This document shows positions 12,661-19,364 of a stretch of 51,605 nucleotides of DNA, piece after piece (positions within the stretch are counted from its first letter, which is position 1; each line of letters starts with the position of its first letter). The position numbers were made by a program, and so were the translations under genes. The notes beneath the pieces were generated by a model, which saw nothing but the letters and a program-made list of their open reading frames with translations, had not been told where the DNA came from and did no database searches. Location of the stretch: positions 1 through 51,605 of the forward strand of contig NZ_JADPKA010000025.1 of NCBI RefSeq assembly GCF_023073715.1, given 5' to 3'. The DNA is from Bradyrhizobium sp. 164. Lineage in GTDB: Bacteria > Pseudomonadota > Alphaproteobacteria > Rhizobiales > Xanthobacteraceae.

Positions 12661-15600
12661 GTGTCGATCTACGTCGCACTACACCACGTCACGCACTACA
12701 AATACGACCGCCCGATCGATCTCGGCCCGCAGACCATCCGGTTGCGGCCGGCGCCGCATACTCGCACGCCGATCCTGAGCTATTCGCTCAAGGTCACGCC
12801 ATCCAATCATTTCGTAAACTGGCAACAGGACCCGCAGGGCAATTGGCTCGCGCGCTACGTCTTCCCGGAGAAGACGACCGAGCTGAAATTCGAGGTCGAT
12901 TTTACGGCGCAGATGACCGTGGTCAATCCGTTCGACTTCTTCGTCGAGCCTTATGCCGACAGCTTTCCGTTCGACTATCCGAAGGACCTGAAGACGGAGC
13001 TTGCGCCCTATCTCGAGACCATCAAGCCCGATCGCTTGTTTGCGCAATATCTCGATGCGATCCCGCAGGAAGCGCCGAACACCGTCAACTTCCTGGTCGA
13101 TCTCAATCGCGAGCTCCAGAAGAAGATCCGGTACGTCATCCGCATGGAGCCGGGCGTGCAGTCTCCGGAGGAGACGCTCAGTTCCGGCGCCGGCTCGTGC
13201 CGCGATTCCGCCTGGCTCTTGATCCAGACCTTCCGCCATCTCGGGCTCGCCGCCCGTTTCGTCTCCGGCTATCTCGTCCAGATCCGTCCCGACATCGATC
13301 CGATCGAGGGGCCGCCGGAGGTTGAGAACGATTTCACCGATCTGCACGCCTGGGCCGAGGTCTACCTTCCGGGCGCGGGCTGGATCGGGTTCGACGCGAC
13401 CTCCGGCATGCTCGCGGGCGAGGGGCACATCCCGGTTGCCGCAACACCGCATTATCGCTCGGCCGCGCCGATCTCCGGTGGCGCCGGCTTTGCCGAGGTC
13501 GAGTTCGCATTCGACATGAGCGTGAAGCGCATTCGCGAGGCGCCGCGCATCACAAAACCGTTCTCTGACGAAGCCTGGGCGCGGCTCAACGATCTCGGCG
13601 AGCAGGTCGACGGCGAACTTGCCGCCCACGACGTGCGGCTCACCATGGGCGGCGAGCCGACCTTCGTCTCGGTCGATGATCTTGAAGCGGCGGAATGGAA
13701 CATCGACGCCGTCGGTCCGACCAAGCGCGCCGTTGCCGACGATCTGATCCGCCGCCTGCGCGTGCGGTTCGCGCCCGGCGGCCTGCTGCACTTCGGCCAG
13801 GGCAAATGGTATCCTGGCGAGACCCTGCCGCGCTGGGCGTTTGGCCTGTATTGGCGCAAGGACGGCGTGCCGATCTGGAAGAATGCGGATCTCATCGCCA
13901 GGATCGAGAACCCGGGGCGCGCTAACGTCAAGGACGCCGAGGCCTTCATGGAGGGCACGGTCGCACGGCTCGGCCTCGATCCCGGCTACATCATGCCGGC
14001 CTATGAAGATCCCGCCTATTGGTTGCAGAAGGAGGGGGAGCTTCCGATCAACGTCGATCCCTCGGATTCCAAGCTGTCCGATCCGGAAGCGCGCGCCCGA
14101 ATGGCGCGGGTGTTCGACGAGGGGCTGAATACGCCAAAGGGCTTCGTGCTGCCGGTGCAGCGCTGGAACGCGGACGCGCCGCGCTGGCGCAGCGAGCGCT
14201 GGAAGCTGCGTCGCAAGCATCTGTTCTTGATGCCCGGCGATTCCCCGCTCGGCCTGCGATTGCCGCTCAGCGCGCTCGAATATATTCCGCCCGATCGCTA
14301 TCCCTATATCGTCGAGCAGGATCCGATGGAGCCGCGCACCAAGCTGCCGGTGTTCGAGCGCATGCCACGCCTGCAATCGCCGCCGCCGCGACTGGCGCCG
14401 GACCGTCCCGACGCAGCGGAGCCGGTACGCACCGCGATGTCGATCGAAGTCCGCGACGGCGTGCTCTGCGCCTTCTTGCCGCCGGTCGAGCGCATCGAGG
14501 ATTATCTGGAGCTGGTCGCGGCCCTCGAAGCCACGGCCGAGGAGATGCAGCTCCAGGTTCATGTCGAGGGTTATCCGCCGCCGTTCGATCCGCGCATCGA
14601 CGTCATCAAGGTGACGCCTGACCCTGGCGTAATCGAGGTCAACGTCCAGCCGGCAAAGAATTGGCGTGAGGCTGTCGACATCACCGTCGGGCTCTATGAG
14701 GATGCCGCCAAGATCCGTCTCGGCGCCAACCGTTTCCTGATCGACGGCCGCCACACCGGCACCGGCGGCGGCAATCACGTCGTGGTCGGCGGCTCGTCAC
14801 CGCAGGACTCGCCGTTCCTGCGGCGGCCCGATCTCTTGAAGAGCCTCGTGCTGTACTGGCAGCGGCATCCGTCGCTGTCCTATTTCTTCTCCGGCCTCTT
14901 CATCGGCCCGACCAGCCAGGCGCCGCGTATCGACGAGGCGCGCCACGACAGCATCTACGAGCTCGAGGTCGCGCTGTCGCATGTGCCGCCGCCCGGCACC
15001 CAGACGCCGCTGTGGCTGGTGGATCGCCTGTTCCGGCATCTGCTGGTCGACATCACCGGCAACACCCACCGTGCCGAGATCTGCATCGACAAGCTCTATT
15101 CGCCGGAAGGTTCGACCGGGCGCCTCGGCCTGGTCGAATTCCGCGCGCTCGAAATGCCGCCTGATCCGCGCATGTCGCTGGCTCAGCAGCTCCTGATCCG
15201 CGCGCTGATCGCAAGGTTCTGGCGCGAGCCGCTGACAGGCAAGTTCGTGCGCTGGGGCACCGCGCTGCATGACCGCTACATGCTGCCGCATTTCATCTGG
15301 GAGGATTTTCATGACGTGCTCACCGAGCTGAAGCAGTTCGGTTATTCCTTCGAGCCGGAATGGTATCTGGCCCAGCTCGAATTCCGCTTCCCCGGCTTCG
15401 GCCGGGTCCATCATGGCGGCGTGACACTGGAGCTGCGCCAGGCGCTGGAGCCCTGGCACGTGCTCGGCGAGGAGGGCTCGGCCGGCGGCACGGTGCGCTA
15501 TGTGGACTCATCGGTCGAGCGGCTTCAGGTTAAGGCCGAGGGATTCGTCGAGGGTCGCCACATTGTCACCTGCAACGGCCGCCGCCTGCCGATGACATCG

Positions 15601-15936
15601 ACCGGCCGCTCGACGGAAGCCGTGGCCGGCGTCCGCTTCAAGGCCTGGCAGCCGGCCTCCGGCCTGCACCCGACCATTCCGGTCCATGCGCCGCTGACCT
15701 TCGACCTGATCGACATCTGGAACGGCCGCTCGCTGGGCGGCTGCGTCTACCACGTCGCCCATCCCGGCGGACGCAACTACGATACCAAGCCCGTCAACAC
15801 CTATGAAGCCGAGGCGCGGCGGCTGGCGCGCTTCCAGGACCACGGCCATACCCCTGGGCCAATACAGCCGCCGCCCGAGGAACGCACAAATGAGTTTCCG
15901 CTGACCCTCGACTTGCGGACCCCGCTCCTGCAATGA
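12661..15936 (+). CDS. Transglutaminase-like / DUF2126 putative amidoligase fusion protein
   Basis: Large cytosolic protein of 1091 residues with two parts. Residues 1-250 are a bacterial transglutaminase N-terminal domain plus a papain-like transglutaminase core with an intact triad: Cys180 (GAGSCRDSAW), His229 (LHAWAEV) and Asp245 (GFDATSG). In bacteria this fold usually works as a peptidase. Residues from about 300 to the end match DUF2126 (COG4196), annotated as a putative amidoligase; MGGEPTFVS, LHFGQGKWYPGE and DGRHTGTGGGNH are conserved-looking motifs. The GTG at 12661 is chosen (SIYVALHHVTHYKYDRP is the usual family start); the frame runs 19 codons further upstream without family likeness. 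It is the first gene of a three-gene operon with an ATP-grasp/alpha-E protein and a second transglutaminase. No substrate is known to me. Confidence 0.85.
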   Translation: MSIYVALHHVTHYKYDRPIDLGPQTIRLRPAPHTRTPILSYSLKVTPSNHFVNWQQDPQGNWLARYVFPEKTTELKFEVDFTAQMTVVNPFDFFVEPYADSFPFDYPKDLKTELAPYLETIKPDRLFAQYLDAIPQEAPNTVNFLVDLNRELQKKIRYVIRMEPGVQSPEETLSSGAGSCRDSAWLLIQTFRHLGLAARFVSGYLVQIRPDIDPIEGPPEVENDFTDLHAWAEVYLPGAGWIGFDATSGMLAGEGHIPVAATPHYRSAAPISGGAGFAEVEFAFDMSVKRIREAPRITKPFSDEAWARLNDLGEQVDGELAAHDVRLTMGGEPTFVSVDDLEAAEWNIDAVGPTKRAVADDLIRRLRVRFAPGGLLHFGQGKWYPGETLPRWAFGLYWRKDGVPIWKNADLIARIENPGRANVKDAEAFMEGTVARLGLDPGYIMPAYEDPAYWLQKEGELPINVDPSDSKLSDPEARARMARVFDEGLNTPKGFVLPVQRWNADAPRWRSERWKLRRKHLFLMPGDSPLGLRLPLSALEYIPPDRYPYIVEQDPMEPRTKLPVFERMPRLQSPPPRLAPDRPDAAEPVRTAMSIEVRDGVLCAFLPPVERIEDYLELVAALEATAEEMQLQVHVEGYPPPFDPRIDVIKVTPDPGVIEVNVQPAKNWREAVDITVGLYEDAAKIRLGANRFLIDGRHTGTGGGNHVVVGGSSPQDSPFLRRPDLLKSLVLYWQRHPSLSYFFSGLFIGPTSQAPRIDEARHDSIYELEVALSHVPPPGTQTPLWLVDRLFRHLLVDITGNTHRAEICIDKLYSPEGSTGRLGLVEFRALEMPPDPRMSLAQQLLIRALIARFWREPLTGKFVRWGTALHDRYMLPHFIWEDFHDVLTELKQFGYSFEPEWYLAQLEFRFPGFGRVHHGGVTLELRQALEPWHVLGEEGSAGGTVRYVDSSVERLQVKAEGFVEGRHIVTCNGRRLPMTSTGRSTEAVAGVRFKAWQPASGLHPTIPVHAPLTFDLIDIWNGRSLGGCVYHVAHPGGRNYDTKPVNTYEAEARRLARFQDHGHTPGPIQPPPEERTNEFPLTLDLRTPLLQ

Positions 15937-18489: not shown

Positions 18490-19364
18490 TCTACGACATC
18501 CGTCACGTCACGACTTACGAATATGAGAGTCCGGTCAGCTTCGCCCGCTGCACGCTGCGGCTGGAGCCGAACAGCGGCAATGGCCAGGAACTGATCTCAC
18601 ACCACGTCGAGATCCGTCCGCGTCCGGCCGAGCGCAATCTCCGCCGCGATTTCTTTGGCACGCTCACCGAGAGCGTGGTGATCGAAGCTGCGCACCGCAA
18701 CTTGCGGATCGATTCTCGATCACGTGTGTCCGTCTCGCGACAGCCGCCAGCGCGTGATGCGGAAAGCCCGGCCTGGGAAAGCATTCGCGACATTGCCTTC
18801 GAGGCGACGAGCCTCGGGCCGTCCTCGCCAGTCGGCTATGTCTTTGCGAGCCCGCTGGTGCCGGTGTTGCATCCGCTCAGCGCCTACGCGGCGATGAGCT
18901 TTGCGCCCGGCGCCGGCATCCTCAAAGGTGCAGCCAATCTCATGCACCGCATCCGCAGCGATTTTCGCTACGACCCAAAGGCGACGGTGATCTCGACGCC
19001 GCTCGGCGAGGTCTTCGACAAGCGTCACGGCGTCTGCCAGGATTTTGCTCATGTGATGATCGCAGGGTTGCGCGGGCTCGGCCTGCCTGCAGCCTATGTC
19101 AGCGGTTATCTGCGTACCGTTCCGCTGGCGGGCCAGCCGCGTCTGCAAGGTGCCGACGCCACCCACGCTTGGGTGTCGCTGTGGTGCGGGCCGGAGCTCG
19201 GCTGGGTCGATTTCGATCCCACCAACGATCTCCTGGTCGCAAATGACCATATCGTGCTCGCGGTCGGGCGCGATTTTTCCGACGTGTCGCCGGTCGACGG
19301 CATCATCGTCGGCTCGCCGAAGCAGAAACTCGGCGTCGCCGTGGATGTGCTGCTGGTGGAATGA
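18486..19364 (+). CDS. Transglutaminase-like cysteine peptidase
   Basis: Protein of 292 residues with a bacterial transglutaminase N-terminal domain (about 1-85) and a transglutaminase core. The triad is intact: Cys184 (HGVCQDFAHV), His227 (DATHAWVSLW), Asp244 (VDFDPTND). Bacterial members of this group are thought to hydrolyse or transfer isopeptide/amide bonds. No signal peptide is seen, so it acts in the cytosol with its operon partners. The GTG at 18486 overlaps the TGA of the ATP-grasp gene by four bases, the usual sign of coupled translation; the upstream part of the open frame lies inside that gene. The related proteasome-like anbu gene, often nearby in other bacteria, is absent from this window. 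Confidence 0.87.
   Translation: MIYDIRHVTTYEYESPVSFARCTLRLEPNSGNGQELISHHVEIRPRPAERNLRRDFFGTLTESVVIEAAHRNLRIDSRSRVSVSRQPPARDAESPAWESIRDIAFEATSLGPSSPVGYVFASPLVPVLHPLSAYAAMSFAPGAGILKGAANLMHRIRSDFRYDPKATVISTPLGEVFDKRHGVCQDFAHVMIAGLRGLGLPAAYVSGYLRTVPLAGQPRLQGADATHAWVSLWCGPELGWVDFDPTNDLLVANDHIVLAVGRDFSDVSPVDGIIVGSPKQKLGVAVDVLLVE

What the first reader, a model, noticed from the sequence alone, without database searches (positions are those of the whole stretch)
12661..19364. Predicted peptide-ligation/cleavage operon: two amidoligase-type and two transglutaminase-type modules
Three genes, 27 bp apart and overlapping by 4 bp, encode transglutaminase-DUF2126, ATP-grasp-alpha-E and transglutaminase. 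All transglutaminase triads are intact. These families are predicted from comparative genomics to make and cut amide bonds, but no product is established to my knowledge. The set here has ATP-grasp fused to alpha-E and lacks the anbu protease gene. It is the best candidate in the window for an undescribed biochemical system, possibly a small peptide or protein tag.
Basis: partly seen in the sequence, partly recalled or inferred. Interest (0 to 1): 0.75.

Follow-up and report, generated by a model that had tools for sequence, protein, structure and literature searches.

The report
Amide-ligase operon with dead ATP-grasp
In a Bradyrhizobium genome, three adjacent genes encode two transglutaminase-like domains with intact catalytic triads, a domain predicted to fold like glutamine synthetase and to make amide bonds, and an ATP-grasp protein that has lost conserved residues thought to hold ATP and is therefore likely inactive; all 46 sampled genomes that have the key gene also carry a separate intact ATP-grasp, so the set would act as an add-on to a second, likely nitrogen-controlled operon rather than as a self-contained peptide-tagging system.

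Summary
The three genes are as described (27-bp gap, 4-bp overlap, intact triads), in the usual alphaproteobacterial layout (69 of 80 named loci). First, anbu is absent only locally: contig C20 of the same genome has an ATP-grasp / Alpha-E / transglutaminase / Anbu operon. Second, the window's ATP-grasp is degenerate: the two lysines invariant in 46 of 46 stand-alone copies are R347 and E394, and the glycine loop is rebuilt (glycines remain, with insertions). None of 103 fused rows has both lysines. Fused copies form one paralogous clade under purifying selection. In 150 Pseudomonadota genomes, all 46 with DUF2126 also carry a separate intact ATP-grasp; in 26 the two sets lie within 12 kb. So the triad looks like an add-on to that hub. 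DUF2126 is predicted to share the glutamine-synthetase/YbdK fold, its candidate active-site residues are invariant, and it is the window's only plausible active ligase. Sigma-54-type sites are enriched before the stand-alone ATP-grasp (13 of 45 upstreams; 16 of 523 other ORFs), matching published nitrogen control in P. putida and B. cenocepacia; the window operon has no such site. The substrate is unknown.

The parts
12661..15936 (+). TG-DUF2126 protein (1091 aa, GTG start): transglutaminase-like domain fused to a predicted GS-fold amidoligase
   Evidence: Pfam DUF2126 1330 bits
12676..13398 (+). transglutaminase-like part (Bact_transglu_N res 6-83, Transglut_core res 136-246); triad C180 (13198-13200), H229 (13345-13347), D245 (13393-13395)
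   Evidence: 120 of 120 rows each
13492..15918 (+). DUF2126 domain (res 278-1086); E332, E659, N661, H706, E826, R828 invariant in 120 of 120 rows
15964..18489 (+). fused ATP-grasp-Alpha-E protein (841 aa)
16270..17409 (+). degenerate circularly permuted ATP-grasp (res 103-482): R347 (17002-17004) and E394 (17143-17145) stand where stand-alone copies have invariant K329 and K376; G189 and R191 replace E168 and N170; loop at about res 395-412 rebuilt with insertions
17551..18438 (+). Alpha-E domain (res 530-825); predicted all-helical, mean pLDDT 89.2
18486..19364 (+). second transglutaminase-like protein (292 aa, GTG start, 4-bp overlap); triad C184 (19035-19037), H227 (19164-19166), D244 (19215-19217)

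Best explanation
The three genes likely form an accessory module of the ATP-grasp/Alpha-E/transglutaminase/Anbu operon that the same genome carries on contig C20: they encode two transglutaminase-like domains with intact triads, a DUF2126 domain predicted to fold like glutamine synthetase and to form an amide bond, and an ATP-grasp-Alpha-E fusion that lacks residues invariant in the stand-alone enzyme and is likely a non-catalytic partner. Proposed cycle (inferred): under nitrogen limitation the hub operon would be switched on through sigma-54/NtrC; its intact ATP-grasp would activate a carboxylate of a peptide or protein as acyl phosphate and join it to an amine; DUF2126 would make a second ATP-dependent amide bond on that product; the fused pseudo-ATP-grasp, which keeps R302, D309 and N337, would bind or present the substrate with its Alpha-E domain; the transglutaminase-like triads would hydrolyse or transfer the bond, and Anbu, where present, would degrade the product. 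Shown here: gene content, linkage, residue losses, co-occurrence, promoter-like sites. Predicted: the GS-like fold. Untested: any catalysis, the substrate, complex formation.
Against: No sigma-54-like site precedes the window operon itself, so co-regulation here is not shown. Glycines are not simply lost: in the window and 6 other Bradyrhizobium-type rows of 103 all three loop positions align to glycine (G400, G403, G408 in the window), though with inserted residues, and 21 of 103 have at least two; residual nucleotide binding is not excluded, and pseudo-enzymes with unusual catalysis are known (recalled). Eight of 103 fused rows keep K376, and three of the four from outside the main sample do. 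The pairing is not corrected for phylogeny beyond the genus count. The GS match covers part of an 830-residue model (TMq 0.17; mean pLDDT 77.7), only one Foldseek row has E <= 0.001, and a profile comparison with GCS2 gave no match. Most named alphaproteobacterial loci keep the two sets apart (both seen at 1 of 80). Vielberg et al. hold a peptide-synthesis role of Anbu less likely (PMC5666114, passages); the Y. bercovieri study found no specific interaction among the operon's proteins (PMC6376114, passages). The M. tuberculosis protein Rv2569c, recalled by me as a third-gene homologue and not compared here, is reported as a surface serine protease (PMC11081392, passages), which does not fit a cytosolic cycle.
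Confidence: 0.53

Rival explanations
1. The triad is a self-sufficient peptide-tagging system with two active ligases; the fused ATP-grasp works with a rebuilt ATP site.
For: Strong Pfam scores; several ATP-grasp residues kept (R302, D309, N337, R461); glycines remain in the rebuilt loop of the window; the domain is under purifying selection.
Against: Both invariant lysines are lost in the window and no fused row of 103 has both; always accompanied by an intact paralogue in 46 of 46 genomes.
Confidence: 0.15
2. The triad has its own job, unrelated to the hub; both occur in the same kinds of bacteria, and the fused protein is a structural scaffold for the DUF2126 ligase.
For: In this genome and in most named alphaproteobacterial loci the two sets are apart (1 of 80 shows both within the fetched stretch); no sigma-54-like site before the window operon; phylogeny is only partly corrected.
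Against: 26 of 46 genomes have both within 12 kb, in one as a five-gene operon with touching genes (L088), and a plasmid carries the same five genes; no exception in 46.
Confidence: 0.25
3. It is a proteolysis or nitrogen-scavenging pathway: the transglutaminase-like proteins act as proteases or amidases with Anbu and Peptidase_Mx, and the ligase folds recognise amide substrates.
For: Nitrogen-limitation induction; Peptidase_Mx near the cluster in 14 of 142 stretches and in Hymenobacter; Vielberg et al. favour protein degradation for Anbu.
Against: The intact ATP-grasp and the invariant candidate GS-type residues point to ATP-driven ligation; Y. bercovieri ATP-grasp releases phosphate from ATP and its Anbu showed no peptidase activity (PMC6376114, passages).
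Confidence: 0.2

Closest known systems
Anbu operon (ATP-grasp, Alpha-E, transglutaminase, Anbu; Iyer 2009, cited through PMC6376114 and PMC5666114)
   Same: Circularly permuted ATP-grasp, Alpha-E and transglutaminase-like families.
   Different: The window lacks Anbu locally, adds DUF2126, fuses ATP-grasp to Alpha-E and has lost conserved ATP-grasp residues; an Anbu operon proper is at contig C20 of this genome.
Glutamine synthetase / YbdK (GCS2) carboxylate-amine ligases
   Same: Predicted fold of DUF2126; invariant Glu, His and Arg residues.
   Different: Larger (about 810 residues), no sequence-profile match found, fused to a transglutaminase-like domain; no activity known in the papers read.
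Glutathionylspermidine synthetase/amidase (recalled, not tested)
   Same: ATP-dependent amide synthesis paired with a cysteine amidase in one protein; 3n6x is named a putative glutathionylspermidine synthase.
   Different: Here the amidase-like partner is a transglutaminase-fold domain and the ligase of that fusion is GS-like, not ATP-grasp.
RimK/RimB and RloABC of Pseudomonas (PMC12239564, passages)
   Same: ATP-grasp paired with a peptidase and, in Rlo, a transglutaminase-type protein.
   Different: Not compared by sequence here; in Rlo the transglutaminase is the inactive member, here the ATP-grasp appears to be.

Membership tests
Anbu operon | circularly permuted ATP-grasp, Alpha-E and transglutaminase-like domains in adjacent genes | tested here: met
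Anbu operon | Anbu gene in the operon | tested here: not met
   no Anbu gene at the window locus (the one own-genome Anbu match is on C20)
catalytic ATP-grasp ligases of the 3n6x type | invariant lysines K329 and K376 (L004 numbering) | tested here: not met
   window R347 and E394
catalytic ATP-grasp ligases of the 3n6x type | SGGYG glycine loop | tested here: inconclusive
   rebuilt with insertions; three glycines still align in the window
GS/GCS2-fold amidoligases | fold of the catalytic domain | tested here: met
GS/GCS2-fold amidoligases | metal and ATP residues of the active site | tested here: inconclusive
   E332, E659, N661, H706, E826, R828 in 120 of 120 rows; their equivalence to GS residues is recalled, not superposed
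GS/GCS2-fold amidoligases | sequence-profile relation to GCS2 | tested here: inconclusive
   hhalign probability 1 against 22 GCS2 proteins, low-diversity profiles
transglutaminase-like cysteine enzymes | Cys-His-Asp triad | tested here: met
   both domains, 120 of 120 and 80 of 80 rows
Glutathionylspermidine synthetase/amidase | activity on glutathione and spermidine | not testable with these tools
   no substrate data

The most novel reading that the evidence does not exclude
A bacterial ligase / pseudo-ligase pair: an ancient, still-constrained ATP-grasp that gave up ATP chemistry and became, with its Alpha-E domain, a carrier platform that holds the product of the intact ATP-grasp while the glutamine-synthetase-like DUF2126 protein adds a second amide bond, giving an undescribed peptide or protein tag made in nitrogen starvation and removed by transglutaminase-fold cysteine hydrolases and Anbu.
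Probability: 0.25. Interest if true: 0.85.

Novelty: new variant of a known kind. Interest (0 to 1): 0.55.

Why it matters
The group is widespread (Alpha-E in 84 of 150 sampled Pseudomonadota genomes; members also seen in Acidobacteriota, Actinomycetota and Bacteroidota records), and its product is unknown in the papers I could read. Records label the fused protein 'circularly permuted type 2 ATP-grasp protein'. Recognising that it lacks residues invariant in the stand-alone enzyme, and is paired with an intact copy in all 46 DUF2126 genomes examined, changes which protein to assay, predicts a complex, and points to nitrogen-starved cells as the place to look for the product.

Tried and rejected

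DUF2126 by sequence: a PDB profile search found only the transglutaminase part plus two chance-level rows; hhalign against 22 GCS2 proteins gave no match.

The PF00227 search of the own genome found only the C44 protein, which is HslV, and would have supported 'no anbu'; the ORF beside the C20 transglutaminase scores 26.5 bits, and searches with that protein settled it.

The sigma-54 pattern over the whole window and over L004 is not above chance; only the upstream-region test against controls is. In one search, TG-DUF2126 upstreams gave 6 of 118 against 1.8 expected from shuffles; not used as evidence. B. cenocepacia L243 and the Enterobacter plasmid L246, included, are not among the 22 best scores listed; in L243 a one-mismatch site lies just inside the called ORF and may precede the true start. 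The 'other ORFs' include chance frames.

One search's residue labels were shifted by one after about residue 219 (an insertion was dropped); one search replaces it. In one search, 106 profile hits from 105 fused ORFs were made; 3 hits were not full-length and left out of the 103. One pair of rows is identical (L100 = L172), and the TG-DUF2126 alignment holds the window twice. Fused and stand-alone Alpha-E genes in the 150 genomes were told apart by open-frame length (800 aa). Three genomes have the fused gene without DUF2126 (G024, G114, G124); all three have a stand-alone Alpha-E too. Five DUF2126 genomes have no fused copy found (G036, G049, G064, G076, G081; G049 and G081 at contig ends). 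The tree tool warned of long branches (L213 above all).

Neighbours: the upstream galactarate/altronate dehydratase-type gene and the downstream HD-domain gene of the window were found only in Bradyrhizobium-like loci among those fetched, so I do not count them as part of the system. Peptidase_Mx recurs but is unlinked in this genome.

That the residue loss is not in print rests on searches of the held library and on passages of the papers named; Iyer et al. 2009 is not held and may already note it.

Odds: the final recount showed that three loop glycines still align in the window; I lowered the main confidence from 0.55 to 0.53 and raised the first rival from 0.12 to 0.15.
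Full report
What is there. The three open reading frames are as stated, with a 27-bp gap and a 4-bp overlap. Pfam gives Bact_transglu_N, Transglut_core and DUF2126 for the first, circularly permuted ATP-grasp and Alpha-E for the second, and Bact_transglu_N plus Transglut_core for the third. Both cysteine triads are conserved in all rows of their alignments (120 of 120 and 80 of 80; 118 distinct proteins in the former). The closest listed protein is from Bradyrhizobium (98%).

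The genome has a second locus. A stretch of contig C20 (L004, minus strand) encodes a 483-aa ATP-grasp, a 314-aa Alpha-E, a 282-aa transglutaminase and an Anbu protein in a row. The Anbu assignment rests on solved Anbu structures as best matches. So Anbu is absent only from the window locus.

How common the layout is. In one, Pseudooceanicola pacificus L174, the Anbu operon stands head to head with the triad.

The ATP-grasp of the triad is degenerate. I aligned 46 stand-alone and 105 fused ATP-grasps, first by MAFFT, then by aligning the fused ones to a profile of the stand-alone ones (recount). Stand-alone copies are invariant at E168, N170, R284, D291, N319, D328, K329, K376, G382, G383 and G385 (L004 numbering). 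In the window the first eight are G189, R191, R302, D309, N337, A346, R347 and E394; the loop has inserted residues but its three glycine positions can still be aligned to G400, G403 and G408. Across 103 full-length fused rows K329 occurs in 3, K376 in 8, both in none; at least two loop glycines in 21, all three in 7 (all Bradyrhizobium-type, the window among them). The solved stand-alone protein 3n6x has the full motifs, opposite to the window's changes. That these lysines and this loop hold ATP is established knowledge of the ATP-grasp fold (recalled), not measured here. Fused copies from Granulicella, Tsukamurella, Burkholderia and an Enterobacter plasmid also lack K329 and at least two loop glycines, though three of the four keep K376; the stand-alone copies of Burkholderia, Enterobacter and Hymenobacter keep both lysines and all three glycines. 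The two types lie on two sides of a 100/100 branch (36 and 40 rows), and the degenerate domain evolves under purifying selection, dN/dS 0.057-0.192 in five comparisons. It is therefore a kept, likely non-catalytic, domain rather than a decaying one.

The triad was not seen without an intact ATP-grasp. In an even sample of 150 Pseudomonadota genomes, DUF2126 is in 46, Alpha-E in 84 and Anbu in 54. All 46 DUF2126 genomes have a stand-alone Alpha-E, against 38 of the other 104; by genus 25 of 25 against 27 of 66. All 44 genomes with a fused copy have one too. Reading the loci, 46 of 46 have a separate ATP-grasp with both lysines and all three loop glycines, and none of the fused frames has all five. 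Anbu is optional: 28 of 46. In 26 genomes a stand-alone Alpha-E is within 12 kb of DUF2126 and in 11 Anbu is; in five of the latter, all of one genus, Anbu overlaps the TG-DUF2126 gene by 4 bp. One genome has ATP-grasp, Alpha-E, TG-DUF2126, fused protein and transglutaminase as a tight operon (L088), and a 90-kb IncFII plasmid of Enterobacter roggenkampii, typed non-mobilizable, carries the same five. Relatedness among the sampled genomes is only partly corrected by the genus count.

Regulation. Sigma-54-type sites (at least 9 of 10 consensus bases) lie within 300 bp upstream of the stand-alone ATP-grasp in 13 of 45 loci, against 16 of 523 other ORFs, and none of up to 200 scrambled motifs reaches 13. 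In this genome the site (L004 11011-11025) is conserved in two other Bradyrhizobium genomes. Published data agree: in P. putida the proteasome-type gene PP_2685 and the ATP-grasp gene PP_2688 rise 4.4 and 4.0 log2 units on nitrate against ammonium, and the PP_2688 promoter responds to nitrogen limitation (PMC8050072, passages and table); in B. cenocepacia a cluster of DUF404/407, DUF403 and two transglutaminase proteins depends on NtrC (PMC5491218, passages and table). In marine metagenomes these domains were associated with urea-metabolism domains (PMC3597751, passages). The window operon itself has no such site.

Mechanism. I propose that the hub's ATP-grasp makes one amide bond and DUF2126 another on the same product, the fused pseudo-ATP-grasp-Alpha-E serves as binding partner, and the transglutaminase-fold proteins, and Anbu where present, undo or process it. 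Only the gene content, residue losses, co-occurrence and promoter-like sites are shown. In Y. bercovieri the stand-alone ATP-grasp released phosphate from ATP, and no specific interaction among the operon's proteins and no Anbu peptidase activity were found (PMC6376114, passages); the passages seen do not concern a fused protein. Vielberg et al. think a peptide-synthesis role of Anbu less likely (PMC5666114, passages). Rv2569c, which I recall as a third-gene homologue, is reported as a surface serine protease (PMC11081392, passages).

Novelty. The operon group was described in 2009 (not held; cited through later papers). The window's layout is a standard one. What I did not find in the papers searched is that the fused ATP-grasp is degenerate and paired with an intact copy. 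The interest lies there; the substrate remains open.

Noticed in passing
L246 (Enterobacter roggenkampii plasmid p1_120063, NZ_CP116251.1) 6120-15311: Five genes in a row (ATP-grasp, Alpha-E, TG-DUF2126, fused ATP-grasp-Alpha-E, transglutaminase) on an IncFII plasmid typed non-mobilizable, with IS6/IS26 and IS110 elements and arsC nearby.
   Followed up: partly
L252 (Klebsiella pneumoniae plasmid pKp_SB612_1) 7965-11902: ATP-grasp / Alpha-E / transglutaminase / proteasome-type protease genes in a row on a plasmid typed as conjugative.
   Followed up: no
L108 12265-13425; L247 6530-7483; G000:C1:32870-33910: A zinc-ribbon Peptidase_Mx protein recurs near the cluster (14 of 142 stretches, and Hymenobacter); the window genome has one, unlinked.
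   Followed up: partly
L245 and L253 (Tsukamurella tyrosinosolvens NCTC13231 'plasmids' 21 and 18): These plasmid records carry aspS and alaS, and rpsT, so they look like chromosome pieces; fused and stand-alone ATP-grasps are on separate records of the same strain.
   Followed up: partly
L174 (Pseudooceanicola pacificus): Anbu operon and DUF2126 triad head to head, seven genes at one locus.
   Followed up: partly
window 11033-12556 and 19581-20408: Flanking galactarate/altronate dehydratase-type gene and HD-domain gene, found only in Bradyrhizobium-like loci among those fetched.
   Followed up: yes
window 10006-10821, 22203-23726, 23896-25107: HpcH/HpaI aldolase, Rieske/pyridine-nucleotide reductase and periplasmic binding protein genes: looks like carbon-compound catabolism around the operon.
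   Followed up: no
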